Below are positions 4,972 to 46,961 of a DNA stretch of 62,230 nucleotides, piece after piece (the stretch's first letter is position 1; each line of letters starts with the position of its first letter). The stretch is taken from assembly GCA_017651265.1 (NCBI GenBank), contig JAGCDO010000003.1, positions 1 through 62,230 on the forward strand, written 5' to 3'. The notes under the pieces were generated by a model that did no database searches, was not told where the DNA came from, and was given only the letters and a program-made list of their open reading frames with translations. This stretch comes from Prevotella sp. (GTDB taxonomy: Bacteria > Bacteroidota > Bacteroidia > Bacteroidales > Bacteroidaceae). Made by a program: the position numbers and the translations under genes.

Positions 4972-5016
4972 ACTTTGAACTTTGAACTTTGAGCTTTGAA
5001 CTTTGAACTTTGAACT
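4968..5016. repeat. Heptamer array, 7 copies of TTGAACT (left arm)
   Basis: Seven units TTGAACT are present, the fourth reading TTGAGCT. The array begins within the last codons of the upstream plus-strand gene (its TGA stop is 4969-4971). Together with 5017-5024 it forms the left arm of a perfect 57-bp inverted repeat with 5117-5173. Confidence 0.95.
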
Positions 5017-5032
5017 TTATGATTACAATAAG

Positions 5033-5104
5033 GTACAAGCACTAAGGCCAAGCACTAAGGTACAAGCACTAAGGCCAAGCACTAAGGTACAAGCACTAAG
5101 GCCA
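5033..5104. repeat. 27-bp tandem repeat in the hairpin loop
   Basis: About 2.6 copies of a 27-bp unit made of two near-halves (GTACAAGCACTAAG then GCCAAGCACTAAG). It lies between the two heptamer arms. Confidence 0.9.
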
Positions 5105-5116
5105 ATACTTGAAGCA

Positions 5117-5180
5117 AATCATAAAGTTCAAAGTTCAAAGTTCAAAGCTCAAAGTTCAAAGTTCAAAGTTCAAAGCTCAA
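5117..5180. repeat. Heptamer array, 8 copies of AGTTCAA (right arm)
   Basis: Eight units AGTTCAA run 5125-5180, the fourth and eighth reading AGCTCAA. Bases 5117-5173 are the exact reverse complement of 4968-5024, including the position of the variant unit. The array overlaps the stop codon of the minus-strand ABC gene (5170-5172). It may act as a bidirectional terminator or barrier between convergent genes. Confidence 0.95.
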
Positions 5181-8555: not shown

Positions 8556-9368
8556 TCATTTTGCGAGTATATGCTTCATGTCTTTATCGTCCAGCTCCAC
8601 CTTGATCTCGCCCACGGTGTGCGGAGCAATCTCAGAGTCGCAGTAGACAAAGGTGATCTCTCCGTCGTCCAGGATGAAGTTCTCCGTAACATACGGGTCT
8701 ATGCCCACAAAGAGTCCTTTTTCCTGGAGTCCTTTCAAATCAGTGACCTCATACTGCTTGCACAGCTTCTCCACAATCAAATCCTTCAGTCCTTGCTCAT
8801 AGCCGGGTACGAAGACATCGCTCAGCTTCAGGATCTTACCCGTCTCCGCGTTGATGTTCTTCACGATGGTTGTGTTCACCCCATGTGCGCCTCCTGCGAA
8901 GCTATACACCTCGGCGATGTAGTTGATGACACCTTTCCTGCCGTTCTCTACCTTGGTGTTGCATGAGTACTGGATACTATACGATGTGCCATGCTCTTTA
9001 TCCATAGCATAGAGTCGTCCGAAGTCCTGCTTGTAGTCGGCTGCATACTTGATGAGGAACGAGTCTACGGCTTCCACAGCACTCATCTTCGAACCGCTGG
9101 CAGAGAGGTAGTCGGGCGTGAGAATGCCTGATCGCAGCAGCGTATCGTTCACCGTTGCCGCGTTCTTGCCAGTAGCATAATGGATCATCAGATGTACCTC
9201 AGCCTGCGGCGAGGAAGCATCGTTGGTGAGTTGGATGGTGGTGTCTTTGACGATACGGTCGAACGCCAGCTCGGCCTCCGCTTCGTTGCCGTCTGTTTTG
9301 CCACCACATGCTGTGATGATGCCCATCAACAGGATAGGCATCAGGGAAGAAAAGAGTAACTTTTTCAT
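8556..9368 (-). CDS. Lipoprotein of the DUF3298/RsiV-like family
   Basis: A 270-residue protein with a signal peptide and lipobox ending ITAC (Cys about residue 21). The mature part has the DUF4163/DUF3298 layout (YSFAGGAHGVNTT, then LSDVFVPGYEQGLKDLI, then a beta-rich end). This domain is found in RsiV anti-sigma factors and in many exported proteins of unknown role. There is no transmembrane anti-sigma part here, so I call it only an envelope lipoprotein. It heads the minus-strand cluster with rsmG, hydrolase, ruvC and the ABC gene. Confidence 0.8.
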   Translation of the reverse strand: MKKLLFSSLMPILLMGIITACGGKTDGNEAEAELAFDRIVKDTTIQLTNDASSPQAEVHLMIHYATGKNAATVNDTLLRSGILTPDYLSASGSKMSAVEAVDSFLIKYAADYKQDFGRLYAMDKEHGTSYSIQYSCNTKVENGRKGVINYIAEVYSFAGGAHGVNTTIVKNINAETGKILKLSDVFVPGYEQGLKDLIVEKLCKQYEVTDLKGLQEKGLFVGIDPYVTENFILDDGEITFVYCDSEIAPHTVGEIKVELDDKDMKHILAK

Positions 9369-44473: not shown

Positions 44474-44663
44474 ACCTTCAAATATTTTATAATGTGATCT
44501 TTGAATCTGTAATAGTTTGATTATATAATGGTTTTTAAGTTATATGTTGCAAAGATATGATTTTTTTCAATACCATCCAAATCTGAAACGATATAAATGA
44601 GAAAAATAGCAGGTTCCTGTCACGCAAAAAAAACCGTTATCAACTGTTAAAATAGGGAAGATA

Positions 44664-44795
44664 ATGAATAAACTGGGGTATTCGGTGAGAAAGACCAATG
44701 GTCATTATAAGTACTATGTTGAAGAACTGCAATATGATGATATTCAAAGGATTATAAAAAATAAGGTAGCCAAATTTGACATCCGCCTCTTCTGA
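44664..44795 (+). pseudogene. Short orphan frame, possible gene 3' remnant (43 codons)
   Basis: Reads MNKLGYSVRKTNGHYKYYVE and then EELQYDDIQRIIKNKVAKFD up to a TGA at 44793. It looks like the C-terminal end of a larger protein rather than a complete one. I suspect a Bacteroidales mobile-element primase or VirE/DUF3874-like protein, but this is a guess from memory. It stops 6 nt before the hairpin pair. Confidence 0.3.
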
Positions 44796-44801
44796 TATTT
44801 C

Positions 44802-44921
44802 AGGGAGGATAGGGAGGATAGGGAGGTAAAATTATAAACTTTATAAATTTTCGGGCGCGAGAGAAAGAAAAATAATATATATTGTTTTAAAAACATCCTC
44901 CCTATCCTCCCTATCCTCCCT
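44802..44921. repeat. Hairpin 1: inverted arms of a 9-bp tandem repeat
   Basis: The left arm (44802-44826) is 2.8 copies of AGGGAGGAT. The right arm (44897-44921) is its exact reverse complement, 25 bp. The 70-nt loop (44827-44896) contains TATAAACTTTATA, CGGGCGCGA and TGTTTTAAAAACAT. The left arm is G-rich enough for a two-layer G-quadruplex. Confidence 0.95.
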
Positions 44922-44936
44922 AAATTGTCCTTCCAA

Positions 44937-45061
44937 GGGGTGGTAGATGTGGCAGATGTGGCAGATGTTTTTAAAACATTATATATTTTCGCGCCCGAGA
45001 CTTATATATTATTCTATAAAGTTTATAAAACTACTGCCACATCTGCCACATCTACCACCCC
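44937..45061. repeat. Hairpin 2: inverted arms of a different 9-bp tandem repeat
   Basis: The left arm (44937-44964) is GGGGTGG plus copies of TAGATGTGG/CAGATGTGG. The right arm (45034-45061) is its exact reverse complement, 28 bp. The 69-nt loop (44965-45033), read on the minus strand, carries the same motifs in the same order as the loop of hairpin 1 (TATAAACTTTATA, CGGGCGCGA, TGTTTTAAAAACAT). Confidence 0.95.
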
Positions 45062-45084
45062 TCACATCAACCATCCAGCACCAA

Positions 45085-45145
45085 GTTATAAGGCTAGTTT
45101 CACCCACTTATCAGCCTAGTTTCTACCACTTATCAGCCTTATAAC
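45085..45145. repeat. Inverted repeat GTTATAAGGCT with inner CCACTTATCAGCC repeats
   Basis: GTTATAAGGCT (45085-45095) pairs with AGCCTTATAAC (45135-45145). Between them CACTTATCAGCCT occurs twice. A further partial copy, ACTAGGCTTGTAAC, follows at about 45154. Confidence 0.8.
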
Positions 45146-45220
45146 TACCACTAACTAGGCTTGTAACTCACGCGGTTATGAGGAGTTTTCGAGGGGCAGA
45201 GCAAAAAGGTAAAGCAAAAT

Positions 45221-45251
45221 TTTGGTGATTCGGAAATAATTCTTACCTTTG
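45221..45251 (+). promoter_or_regulatory. Promoter of the TlpA-like gene
   Basis: TTTG at 45221-45224, 19 bp, TACCTTTG at 45244-45251. The leader to the ATG at 45352 would be about 95 nt. Confidence 0.8.
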
Positions 45252-45351
45252 CACTACCAGAACCCTCCAAGCCTCTCTATGATGCTCAAATGTGCGGGTC
45301 GTTTTATTGATACTATGAGAGTATGTTTCTATTTACATTCACTATAAAAAA

Positions 45352-46961
45352 ATGAATCAAATGAACAAGAAAAACACCTTAATCATTTTGCTTGCGCTGC
45401 TTATTGCACCTACCTGCATGGCGGCAAAGAAGAAAGTAAAGAAAGTAGAGAAAGTAGAGGTTCCTCAGTTGCTGAACTATCCCAGTGCAGAGATCAGCGA
45501 ATATCGTCTGCATGGAGGCAACGTGGTGATACAGGGACACCTTGAATTACCTGATGAAGCGAAGGGGGAGAAGATTCCTCAGGAGGTACTCGACAAGATA
45601 AATGGTTATTTTTCGGTTGTCGTGCGCAACTATATCGTTGACAAGGAGGAGCAATCTCTTATCGAGTTCAAGGACGACGGCACCTTCTCGCTCAACGTCT
45701 ATGTGCCTTACCCTATGCCATTACTCGTTTATCCGTTAGGAATGGCTTATGGCTGTCCTGGCGATACCATTAACATCACTCTTGATATGAAAAAGCCATC
45801 GCTTCAAGAGGGTGTGACGTTTGACGGTACAGGCCTTGGCGGGGAGGTTTCCAGAACGTTTCAGCAGATGTGGGAAAAATACCACCTGACTTCCAGACCG
45901 AGTGATGAGGCAGAGAATAATCTTGACTCGCTGATGATGTGGAAGGACAGACAGGTGGCAGAGATGGACGAGCTGGTCAGGAAAATGAACGACGGACTGC
46001 CGGAGCTGGCTGACTGCTCGCCTTTGGCTTCCGACATCTTGCGAACCTTTATTCTTGGAGAGTATATGAGTAATATTTGTGGCACTTTTATGATGGCAGA
46101 GGACCTGCTGGATAATGATAACACGATATCCCGCGATGACTATTGGCAGCAGTTCTTCAGTTTTGTGGCACCACGTGAGAAATACCTGACCGACAATCCG
46201 CTACTGTTGATCGCTGGCGACTGGAGCTTCTTCAACAGGATGCAGTTTCAGGTCTTCCGCCCTACAAAGTATAGAGTGCTAAATTACATCCCCTTTGATT
46301 ACGACCCCAAGAAAGCTGAGCATATGGCAGAGGTTCAGGAGGTGTTCCGTCGCGAGAACAGGAAATATACATTGGATTTGCTACAGGAAAAACTGCACAT
46401 CAGTCCTACCGACTTTAGTGTCCAGGTGGTGATGTTGCTCGACTTTTTCGGCGACACACGATGGAACAAGGGACAGTATGATGTGATTGCTGATGACTTT
46501 GCTTGCACCATGAACTTTGTCTCTCATCCTGAACTGATTCGACAGGGTGTTCTGGGCTTTCGTGAATTCATTAAGGAGAACGAGATCAAGGTGGCGGAAG
46601 ACAAGCCATTGACCAAGGGCGACAGTATCTTCCAACGCATCATCGAACCGTACAAAGGTAACGTGCTCTACGTGGATTTCTGGGAGATGTCGTGCGGCCC
46701 CTGCCGTGCAGGTATGCTGGCCATGCGCGATGAGGTAAAGGCGAACAAGGACAGGCCCGTGAAGTATCTCTACGTGACTGATGACACACCAGAGGAATGT
46801 AAGTCGTTCCTGGAACCCAACAACATCCAGGGCGAGCACATCCATATCACTCGCTCAGAATGGGCCTATTTGAAGCAGAAGTTCAATTTTTCAGCCATAT
46901 TGTCGATAAACAGGGCAGGGTGCGTGAAGACGTGACGGTGGAGCAGCTGTTAAGTGAATAG
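45352..46961 (+). pseudogene. TlpA/thioredoxin-like secreted protein with a 3' frameshift
   Basis: The open frame gives 527 residues to a TGA at 46933. Signal peptide (IILLALLIAPTCMA), a Bacteroidetes DUF-type N-terminal half, then a thioredoxin fold with CGPC (Cys448-Cys451) in VDFWEMSCGPCRAGM. After KQKFNFS the frame loses the expected Gly-Ile-Pro loop and ends in an unrelated tail (AILSINRAGCVKT). The +1 frame at the same place reads HIVDKQGRVREDVTVEQLLS and stops at 46959, the normal end of the family. A deletion near 46893-46905 has thus removed the cis-proline loop and shifted the frame. It may be dead or keep only partial redox ability. An ATG also occurs at 45361. Confidence 0.8.

What the first reader, a model, noticed from the sequence alone, without database searches (positions are those of the whole stretch)
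44802..45061. Twin hairpins: unrelated 9-bp-repeat arms around the same core in opposite orientation
Two large hairpins stand 15 bp apart. Hairpin 1 has perfect 25-bp arms built from AGGGAGGAT units; hairpin 2 has perfect 28-bp arms built from (T/C)AGATGTGG units. The arm sequences are unrelated, yet both sets have period 9 and are perfectly self-complementary. The roughly 70-nt loops share TATAAACTTTATA, CGGGCGCGA and TGTTTTAAAAACAT in the same order, but on opposite strands. Arms thus change together while pairing and core are kept, as expected of a structured RNA, a single-strand DNA recombination or replication site (attC-like), or an array copied by hairpin template switching. A possible gene remnant ends 6 bp before it. 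I know no described element with this design.
Basis: partly seen in the sequence, partly recalled or inferred. Interest (0 to 1): 0.78.

Follow-up and report, generated by a model that had tools for sequence, protein, structure and literature searches.

The report
Orphan replication origins with inverted iterons
The twin hairpins look like two leftover DNA replication start sites of a helicase gene of the kind carried by mobile elements, in which two mirrored sets of short binding sites change together to suit the helicase; if right, gut bacteria hold a readable lock-and-key code between an initiator protein and its origin.

Summary
In detail: hairpin 1 (44802-44921, perfect 25-bp arms) and hairpin 2 (44936-45062, perfect 29-bp arms) each exceed 1000 dinucleotide shuffles and share a core in opposite orientation. 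The 'gene remnant' is the C-terminal end of a VapE-type helicase, here called Rep. Most of 77 related rep genes, chiefly from ruminant-gut Prevotellaceae, show the same layout at the rep stop codon: two inverted arrays of 7-9-bp repeats around a region with a GC-rich centre. The two arrays match within a locus (score 13 or more in 56 of 77, against 16 of 200 control gene ends). Array sequence follows the Rep winged helix, not the helicase (partial Mantel 0.380 against -0.017); the most informative of 396 Rep columns lies in the predicted wing. Arm pairs often need a gap (41 of 67) and show no wobble bias (27 against 29), against an RNA or hairpin-only reading. Best explanation: a SaPI/PriRep-like origin whose arms are iterons. 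The window copies look like relics: rep is truncated or absent. New variant of a known kind. Binding and replication are inferred, not shown.

The parts
44628..44795 (+). C-terminal remnant (about 55 codons and stop) of a VapE-type Rep: the winged-helix end of the initiator
   Evidence: tblastn-type match to residues 392-446 of the intact Rep of L007, 49% identity, E 3.8e-9; no Pfam family at its cut-off by itself
44802..44826 (+). origin 1, rep-proximal iteron array (AGGGAGGAT units)
44827..44896 (+). origin 1, AT-rich core with GC-rich centre CGGGCGCGAG; same orientation relative to rep as in L004, L007, L011, L012 and L014
44897..44921 (+). origin 1, distal inverted iteron array
44922..44935 (+). 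short 3' flank ending TTGTCCTTCCAA, found also after the arrays in L007, L011 and, with changes, L012 and L014
44936..44964 (+). origin 2, left iteron array ((T/C)AGATGTGG units)
44965..45033 (-). origin 2 core, inverted relative to the flank
45034..45062 (+). origin 2, right inverted iteron array; no rep remnant was recognised beside origin 2
45063..45082 (+). 3' flank of origin 2 (CACATCAACCATCCAGCACC), a diverged form of the TCCTTCCAAC flank

Best explanation
Each hairpin is the replication origin of a VapE/PriRep-type initiator helicase. The arms are two inverted arrays of short iterons, about three units a side. The C-terminal winged helix of Rep reads them; two Rep multimers, probably hexamers, assemble head to head, melt the AT-rich DNA between them and load as helicases. 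When Rep changes specificity both arrays must change, so arms are unrelated between elements but alike within one; the hairpin look is mainly a by-product of inverted iterons, helped in the window's close group by exchange between the arms. In this window rep is cut to its last 55 or so codons (origin 1) or absent (origin 2), so both are probably relics. Shown here by sequence: layout, position at the rep stop codon, matching of the two arrays, co-variation with the Rep winged helix. Inferred: binding, multimers, melting, replication, relic status.
Against: No experiment shows binding or replication. The layout was not clear in 8 of 8 distant VapE relatives taken from plasmids and phages, where replication is least in doubt, and clear in only 2 of 28 order-level loci. 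21 of 77 rep ends fall below 13. A cruder first test gave 21 of 77 rep ends against 21 of 160 controls. Other inverted short-repeat palindromes without VapE occur in the same genomes. Some arms are mirrored even where unit spacing is irregular (L074, L080), which iteron binding alone does not require. Iteron classes were defined by me after seeing the arrays, without a tree-based test.
Confidence: 0.75

Rival explanations
1. Rep-binding control site rather than origin: the inverted iterons are an operator, handcuffing or partition site through which Rep regulates itself or the downstream genes.
For: The co-variation of arrays with the Rep winged helix shows recognition at most, not replication. 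A conserved set of genes follows (DUF4248-like, HU-like, amidase).
Against: The arrays lie at the 3' end of rep, not at its promoter, with an AT-rich core between two sets, as stated for origins next to SaPI rep; Rep is a helicase by family and fold.
Confidence: 0.12
2. A generic palindrome made and kept by template switching or conversion between short tandem repeats, without function.
For: Other inverted short-repeat palindromes exist in these genomes (window 4981-5160; CACGAATTT and CACGGATTT arrays among the best controls). Arms of the close group are mirrored with irregular spacing (L074, L080). Cores of hairpin 2 and L018 are flipped.
Against: Rep ends are strongly enriched (56 of 77 against 16 of 200); the arrays follow Rep wing residues; 41 of 67 arm pairs differ by a gap yet keep the units.
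Confidence: 0.07
3. A structured RNA or transcription terminator at the 3' end of rep mRNA, with arms kept paired by compensatory change.
For: The centre is a GC-rich palindrome often followed by a T run, with changes on both sides in 44 cells against 29.3 shuffled (0 of 500).
Against: No wobble bias (27 against 29); 41 of 67 arm pairs need a gap; two further measures do not exceed shuffles (pairs with a change on both sides 5 against 4.9; pair types 13 against 14.0). Over the hairpins Rfam gave only families below their gathering scores.
Confidence: 0.04
4. Ends or recombination sites of a mobile element (MITE-like or attC-like), the palindrome being what a transposase or integrase acts on.
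For: Copies are scattered; the four rep fragments with at least 49% identity keep the 3' end; one locus differs between three genomes.
Against: The arrays follow Rep, not a recombinase. No recombinase stood out among gene clusters shared by six or more of the 80 loci, but no family search for integrases or transposases was run and no target duplication was worked out.
Confidence: 0.02

Closest known systems
SaPI Rep / PriRep origins (self-loading initiator helicases of staphylococcal islands)
   Different: Bacteroidales host; arrays mirrored, overlapping the rep stop codon in many loci; GC-rich palindromic centre; neighbours DUF4248, HU-like, amidase. I did not compare SaPI origin sequences; that two iteron sets flank an AT-rich region there is recalled
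SCCmec Cch2 origin
   Same: Self-loading helicase whose isolated C-terminal domain binds repeats downstream of its gene (passages of PMC7581432)
   Different: Direct repeats of another sequence and only three iterons; deleting inverted repeats there did not affect binding
Viral initiator origins with inverted sites (SV40 large T antigen pentamers, papillomavirus E1 sites)
   Same: Recalled: oppositely oriented short sites bound by two helicase hexamers head to head
   Different: There an N-terminal domain reads the sites (passage), here a C-terminal winged helix; no homology claimed
Integron attC sites
   Same: Recalled: imperfect palindromes with little conserved sequence
   Different: Here arms are tandem repeats tied to a helicase gene; attC features were not tested

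Membership tests
SaPI/PriRep-type rep-adjacent iteron origin | Initiator helicase of VapE/PriRep fold with a C-terminal winged helix | tested here: met
SaPI/PriRep-type rep-adjacent iteron origin | Origin directly downstream of rep | tested here: met
   Matching arrays around the rep stop codon, 56 of 77 at score 13 or more against 16 of 200 controls; window array starts 6 bp after the remnant's stop
SaPI/PriRep-type rep-adjacent iteron origin | Short iterons in two sets flanking a region that can melt | tested here: met
   Arrays of 7-9-bp units on both sides; core AT-rich in the sequence shown, with a GC-rich centre; two sets in SaPIs is recalled
SaPI/PriRep-type rep-adjacent iteron origin | Rep C-terminal domain binds the iterons | not testable with these tools
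   Co-variation only: partial Mantel 0.380 against -0.017, wing residue 403
SaPI/PriRep-type rep-adjacent iteron origin | Replication in vivo | not testable with these tools
   needs an experiment or read-depth data
Phage-inducible island (SaPI/PICI) as a whole | Integrase, excision and helper-phage induction | not tested
   no integrase or induction search was run; one search clustered neighbours only
Structured RNA | Stems kept by compensatory change with G-U pairs tolerated on the RNA strand | tested here: not met
   For the arms: wobble-type mismatches 27 against 29 on the other strand, 41 of 67 arm pairs gapped. For the centre mixed: two measures at 0 of 500, two not above shuffles
attC-type recombination site | R and L boxes, extrahelical bases, integron integrase | not tested
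   no search run
MITE or IS end | Terminal inverted repeats with target duplication | tested here: inconclusive
   One locus compared in three genomes differs; ends and target duplications were not resolved

The most novel reading that the evidence does not exclude
A so far undescribed family of replicating cassettes lives in Bacteroidales chromosomes: small protein, VapE Rep, mirrored iteron origin, DUF4248, HU-like protein, amidase. Lineages evolve their own Rep-origin pairs largely through residues of the Rep wing (403 and neighbours), giving a natural set of orthogonal initiator-origin pairs. Rep can be lost while the origin stays, so orphan origins such as the two in this window could still be fired in trans by an incoming Rep.
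Probability: 0.45. Interest if true: 0.78.

Novelty: new variant of a known kind. Interest (0 to 1): 0.64.

Why it matters
VapE-type genes recur in these genomes (all six genomes hold several), yet in the held library no paper has VapE together with iteron, and none has DUF3874 or BT4734 with Bacteroides. If the reading is right, such genes are initiators whose origins can be found by rule (mirrored short repeats at the rep stop codon), and a wing residue predicts the iteron class. That makes the evolution of initiator specificity directly testable, could give orthogonal origins for Bacteroidales vectors, and explains palindromes like these.

Tried and rejected
Rfam at E up to 10 over 44500-45400: over the hairpins only families below their gathering scores, mostly eukaryotic microRNAs. 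Core pattern with one mismatch in 398 genus genomes: 7 genomes hit; G000, G094 and G179 hold true copies, the single hits in G337, G218, G008 and G292 (L021, L022, L023, L027) have no hairpin. So the core alone is too narrow, and I went through rep instead. L008, L009, L010 and L013 are chance matches by eye. The first control of rep ends (160 of 574 control ends used) looked only after the stop codon and without gaps: 21 of 77 rep ends against 21 of 160 controls. It was poor because left arrays often lie before the stop and some controls were the same palindrome seen from a convergent gene; one search replaced it (200 of 490 control ends used). Viral contigs: 39 pattern matches, no relative of the query; such scans reach close relatives only. 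Distant VapE genes: 4 plasmid and 4 phage records out of 63 and 316 with a match were fetched; 0 of 8 show the layout clearly, two (L201, L204) have a weak inverted pair. Order level: 28 of the 30 loci fetched were scanned; 2 clear (L171, L199, both of genome G654), five others beat 60 of 60 shuffles without a clear layout (L172, L173, L174, L187, L188), the rest are weak or nothing.

Choices to weigh: iteron classes are motif rules that I wrote after seeing the arrays; 48 of 67 loci fall in the four classes used, 19 were left out; no tree-based test was made. Columns 415-436 of Rep also score (mean z 3.58), but there the left array can lie inside the gene, so that is partly trivial. The 45 sequences were picked for GCGTAC...GTACGC out of 68 listed, so their invariance is partly by choice. 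One search used 67 of 77 loci (arm score 11 or more). Three of 80 loci (L117, L137, L151) had no 3' flank. The 80 loci are the best of 115.

Full report
WHAT IS THERE. Both hairpins are present and far beyond chance. Hairpin 1 pairs 25 of 25 positions (44802-44826 with 44897-44921), loop 70 nt; score 25, maximum 13 in 1000 dinucleotide shuffles. Hairpin 2 scores 33, maximum 12; its perfect part is 29 bp (44936-44964 with 45034-45062) and pairing runs on into the core. The cores share three motifs in the same order on opposite strands.

RELATIVES. Searches of the own genome and of 200 genus genomes (6 with a match, 3 of them real) gave further copies in G000, G094 and G179. Their arms are tandem units of several kinds (AGTGGGGGT in L004 and L011, TGAGGGGGT in L007 and L012, GTAGGGGAT in L014). 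Several lie beside the same short coding remnant as in the window. In L007 the gene is complete: 446 codons, ending 4 bp before the arm. It is a VapE-type protein (Pfam VapE-like 7.8e-33, DUF5906 2.1e-10, weak C-terminal DUF3874 0.012; PHROGs DNA helicase 4.1e-48). The window remnant matches its residues 392-446 (49% identity, E 3.8e-9).

GENERAL DESIGN. A scan of one genome per species found 115 relatives, of which the best 80 were kept, chiefly from ruminant-gut Prevotellaceae assemblies; 77 have enough 3' sequence. Read by eye, most follow one plan: an array near or across the rep stop codon, a short A/T stretch, a GC-rich, largely alternating palindrome (often CGCGTACCG...CGGTACGCG), a second A/T stretch, and a second array of about three units in inverse orientation. 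Exceptions by eye include L108, L125, L134 and L139. Units include ATACAGATG, GGACAGTA, TGACGGAT, GATGGTGAG and GGTGTAGGG, 7 to 9 bp apart. Where the left array lies inside the gene it is translated as an acidic tail such as DTDTDDTDVF.

STATISTICS. Left array against the reverse complement of the right array: mean 15.95 within loci, 7.80 between loci, 0 of 10000 permutations reach the observed mean; the own partner is best in 21 of 77, in the top 5% in 39, in the top 10% in 55. With the centre chosen blindly for every set, rep ends score 16.64 on average and 56 of 77 reach 13; control gene ends of the same loci (200 of 490 used) score 8.46 and 16 reach 13; shuffled rep ends 0 of 77. An earlier, cruder test was much weaker (21 of 77 against 21 of 160).

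WHY NOT RNA OR A BARE HAIRPIN. Of 67 arm pairs 41 need a gap and 5 are perfect. Mismatches that would be G-U pairs on the mRNA strand are as many as those on the other strand (27 and 29; 112 transversions). So the units are kept rather than in-register pairing. Two facts stand on the other side. In the close group arms are mirrored even where spacing is irregular (L074, L080). The central palindrome shows changes on both sides in 44 cells (29.3 in shuffles, 0 of 500; slid versions 10 to 25), though the number of pairs with such changes (5 against 4.9) and of pair types (13 against 14.0) does not exceed shuffles (45 of 68 sequences, chosen for the motif). A structural role of the centre, or exchange between the arms, is therefore possible. 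In the window's group the core points the same way relative to rep in the six rep-adjacent copies compared, and is flipped relative to the flank in the two copies without rep, hairpin 2 and L018.

STATE OF THE WINDOW COPY. Rep is cut to its last 55 or so codons at origin 1 and not recognisable at origin 2. In the own genome (93.9% complete) the best match with a longer open frame has only 32% identity. The four rep fragments with at least 49% identity, at separate loci, keep the C-terminal end (G000:C51, G000:C27, G094:C30, G179:C13); a weaker 47-residue internal match exists in G218 (45%). At one locus three genomes differ: no array or rep in G000, a 126-codon fragment with GTGTAGAGG units in G179, a 43-codon ORF with GTAGGGGAT units in G094. 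This looks like turnover of elements with the origin end kept; how it comes about is not shown.

CONTEXT. Gene clusters recurring in the 80 loci: a small upstream protein (43 loci), an HU-like protein (40), an amidase (22), a DUF4248-like protein (18) and an HTH-like protein (11), chiefly on the rep strand; Pfam names for L065: DUF4248 6.7e-24, HU-HIG 1.1e-18, Amidase_2 8e-21. The layout was clear in 0 of 8 distant VapE relatives from plasmids and phages and in 2 of 28 order-level loci, so it belongs to part of the family.

LITERATURE. [quoted passage not shown] Passages of PMC7145576 describe PLE RepA iterons. Searches for VapE with iteron(s), DUF3874 and BT4734 with Bacteroides found no paper; DUF4248 with Bacteroides gave three, seen in the listing only; a five-term search listed nothing on this by title. 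That two iteron sets flank an AT-rich region in SaPIs is recalled, not seen here.

VERDICT. A SaPI/PriRep-like, mirrored iteron origin of Bacteroidales VapE cassettes, present in this window as two orphan copies. The class is known in principle; the host, the geometry and the Rep-to-iteron code look new in the searches made.

Noticed in passing
window 4981-5160: Another palindrome: perfect 44-bp arms of a 7-bp unit (TTTGAAC) around a 92-nt loop of TTAGTGCTTG repeats, 9 bp after the stop of an ABC-transporter gene and not beside a VapE gene.
   Followed up: partly
L103, L106, L123, L105 (gene ends away from rep): Other inverted arrays with 9-bp units (CACGAATTT, CACGGATTT, CACAGATCT, CACAGAAAC) near genes other than rep; a second class of mirrored short repeats in these genomes.
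   Followed up: no
window 45084-45160; also L004 1095-1180, L014, L006: TTATAAGGCTGATAAGTGG-type repeat stretch next to the origins, with about a dozen more matches elsewhere in the own genome.
   Followed up: no
window 45263-45299: Rfam abiF RNA match above its gathering score (43.8 bits, cut-off 37) just upstream of the gene at 45352.
   Followed up: no
L069 about 9074-9192, and many places in G000 and G179: A roughly 100-bp intergenic repeat with dozens of matches per genome; it borders the truncated rep in L014.
   Followed up: no
L038, L043, L044, L048, L049, L051, L057: VapE genes of other subfamilies lie near other repeat arrays (22-bp TTCCCAACGTGGGAA type, ACTTAAGT, ACATCTAACCC), perhaps origins of another layout.
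   Followed up: no
Rep C-termini of L073-L152: Many Rep tails end in acidic residues and a final F (TDKPF, TDQPF, DDTDVF), which recalls the C-terminal tip of single-strand binding protein; not tested.
   Followed up: no
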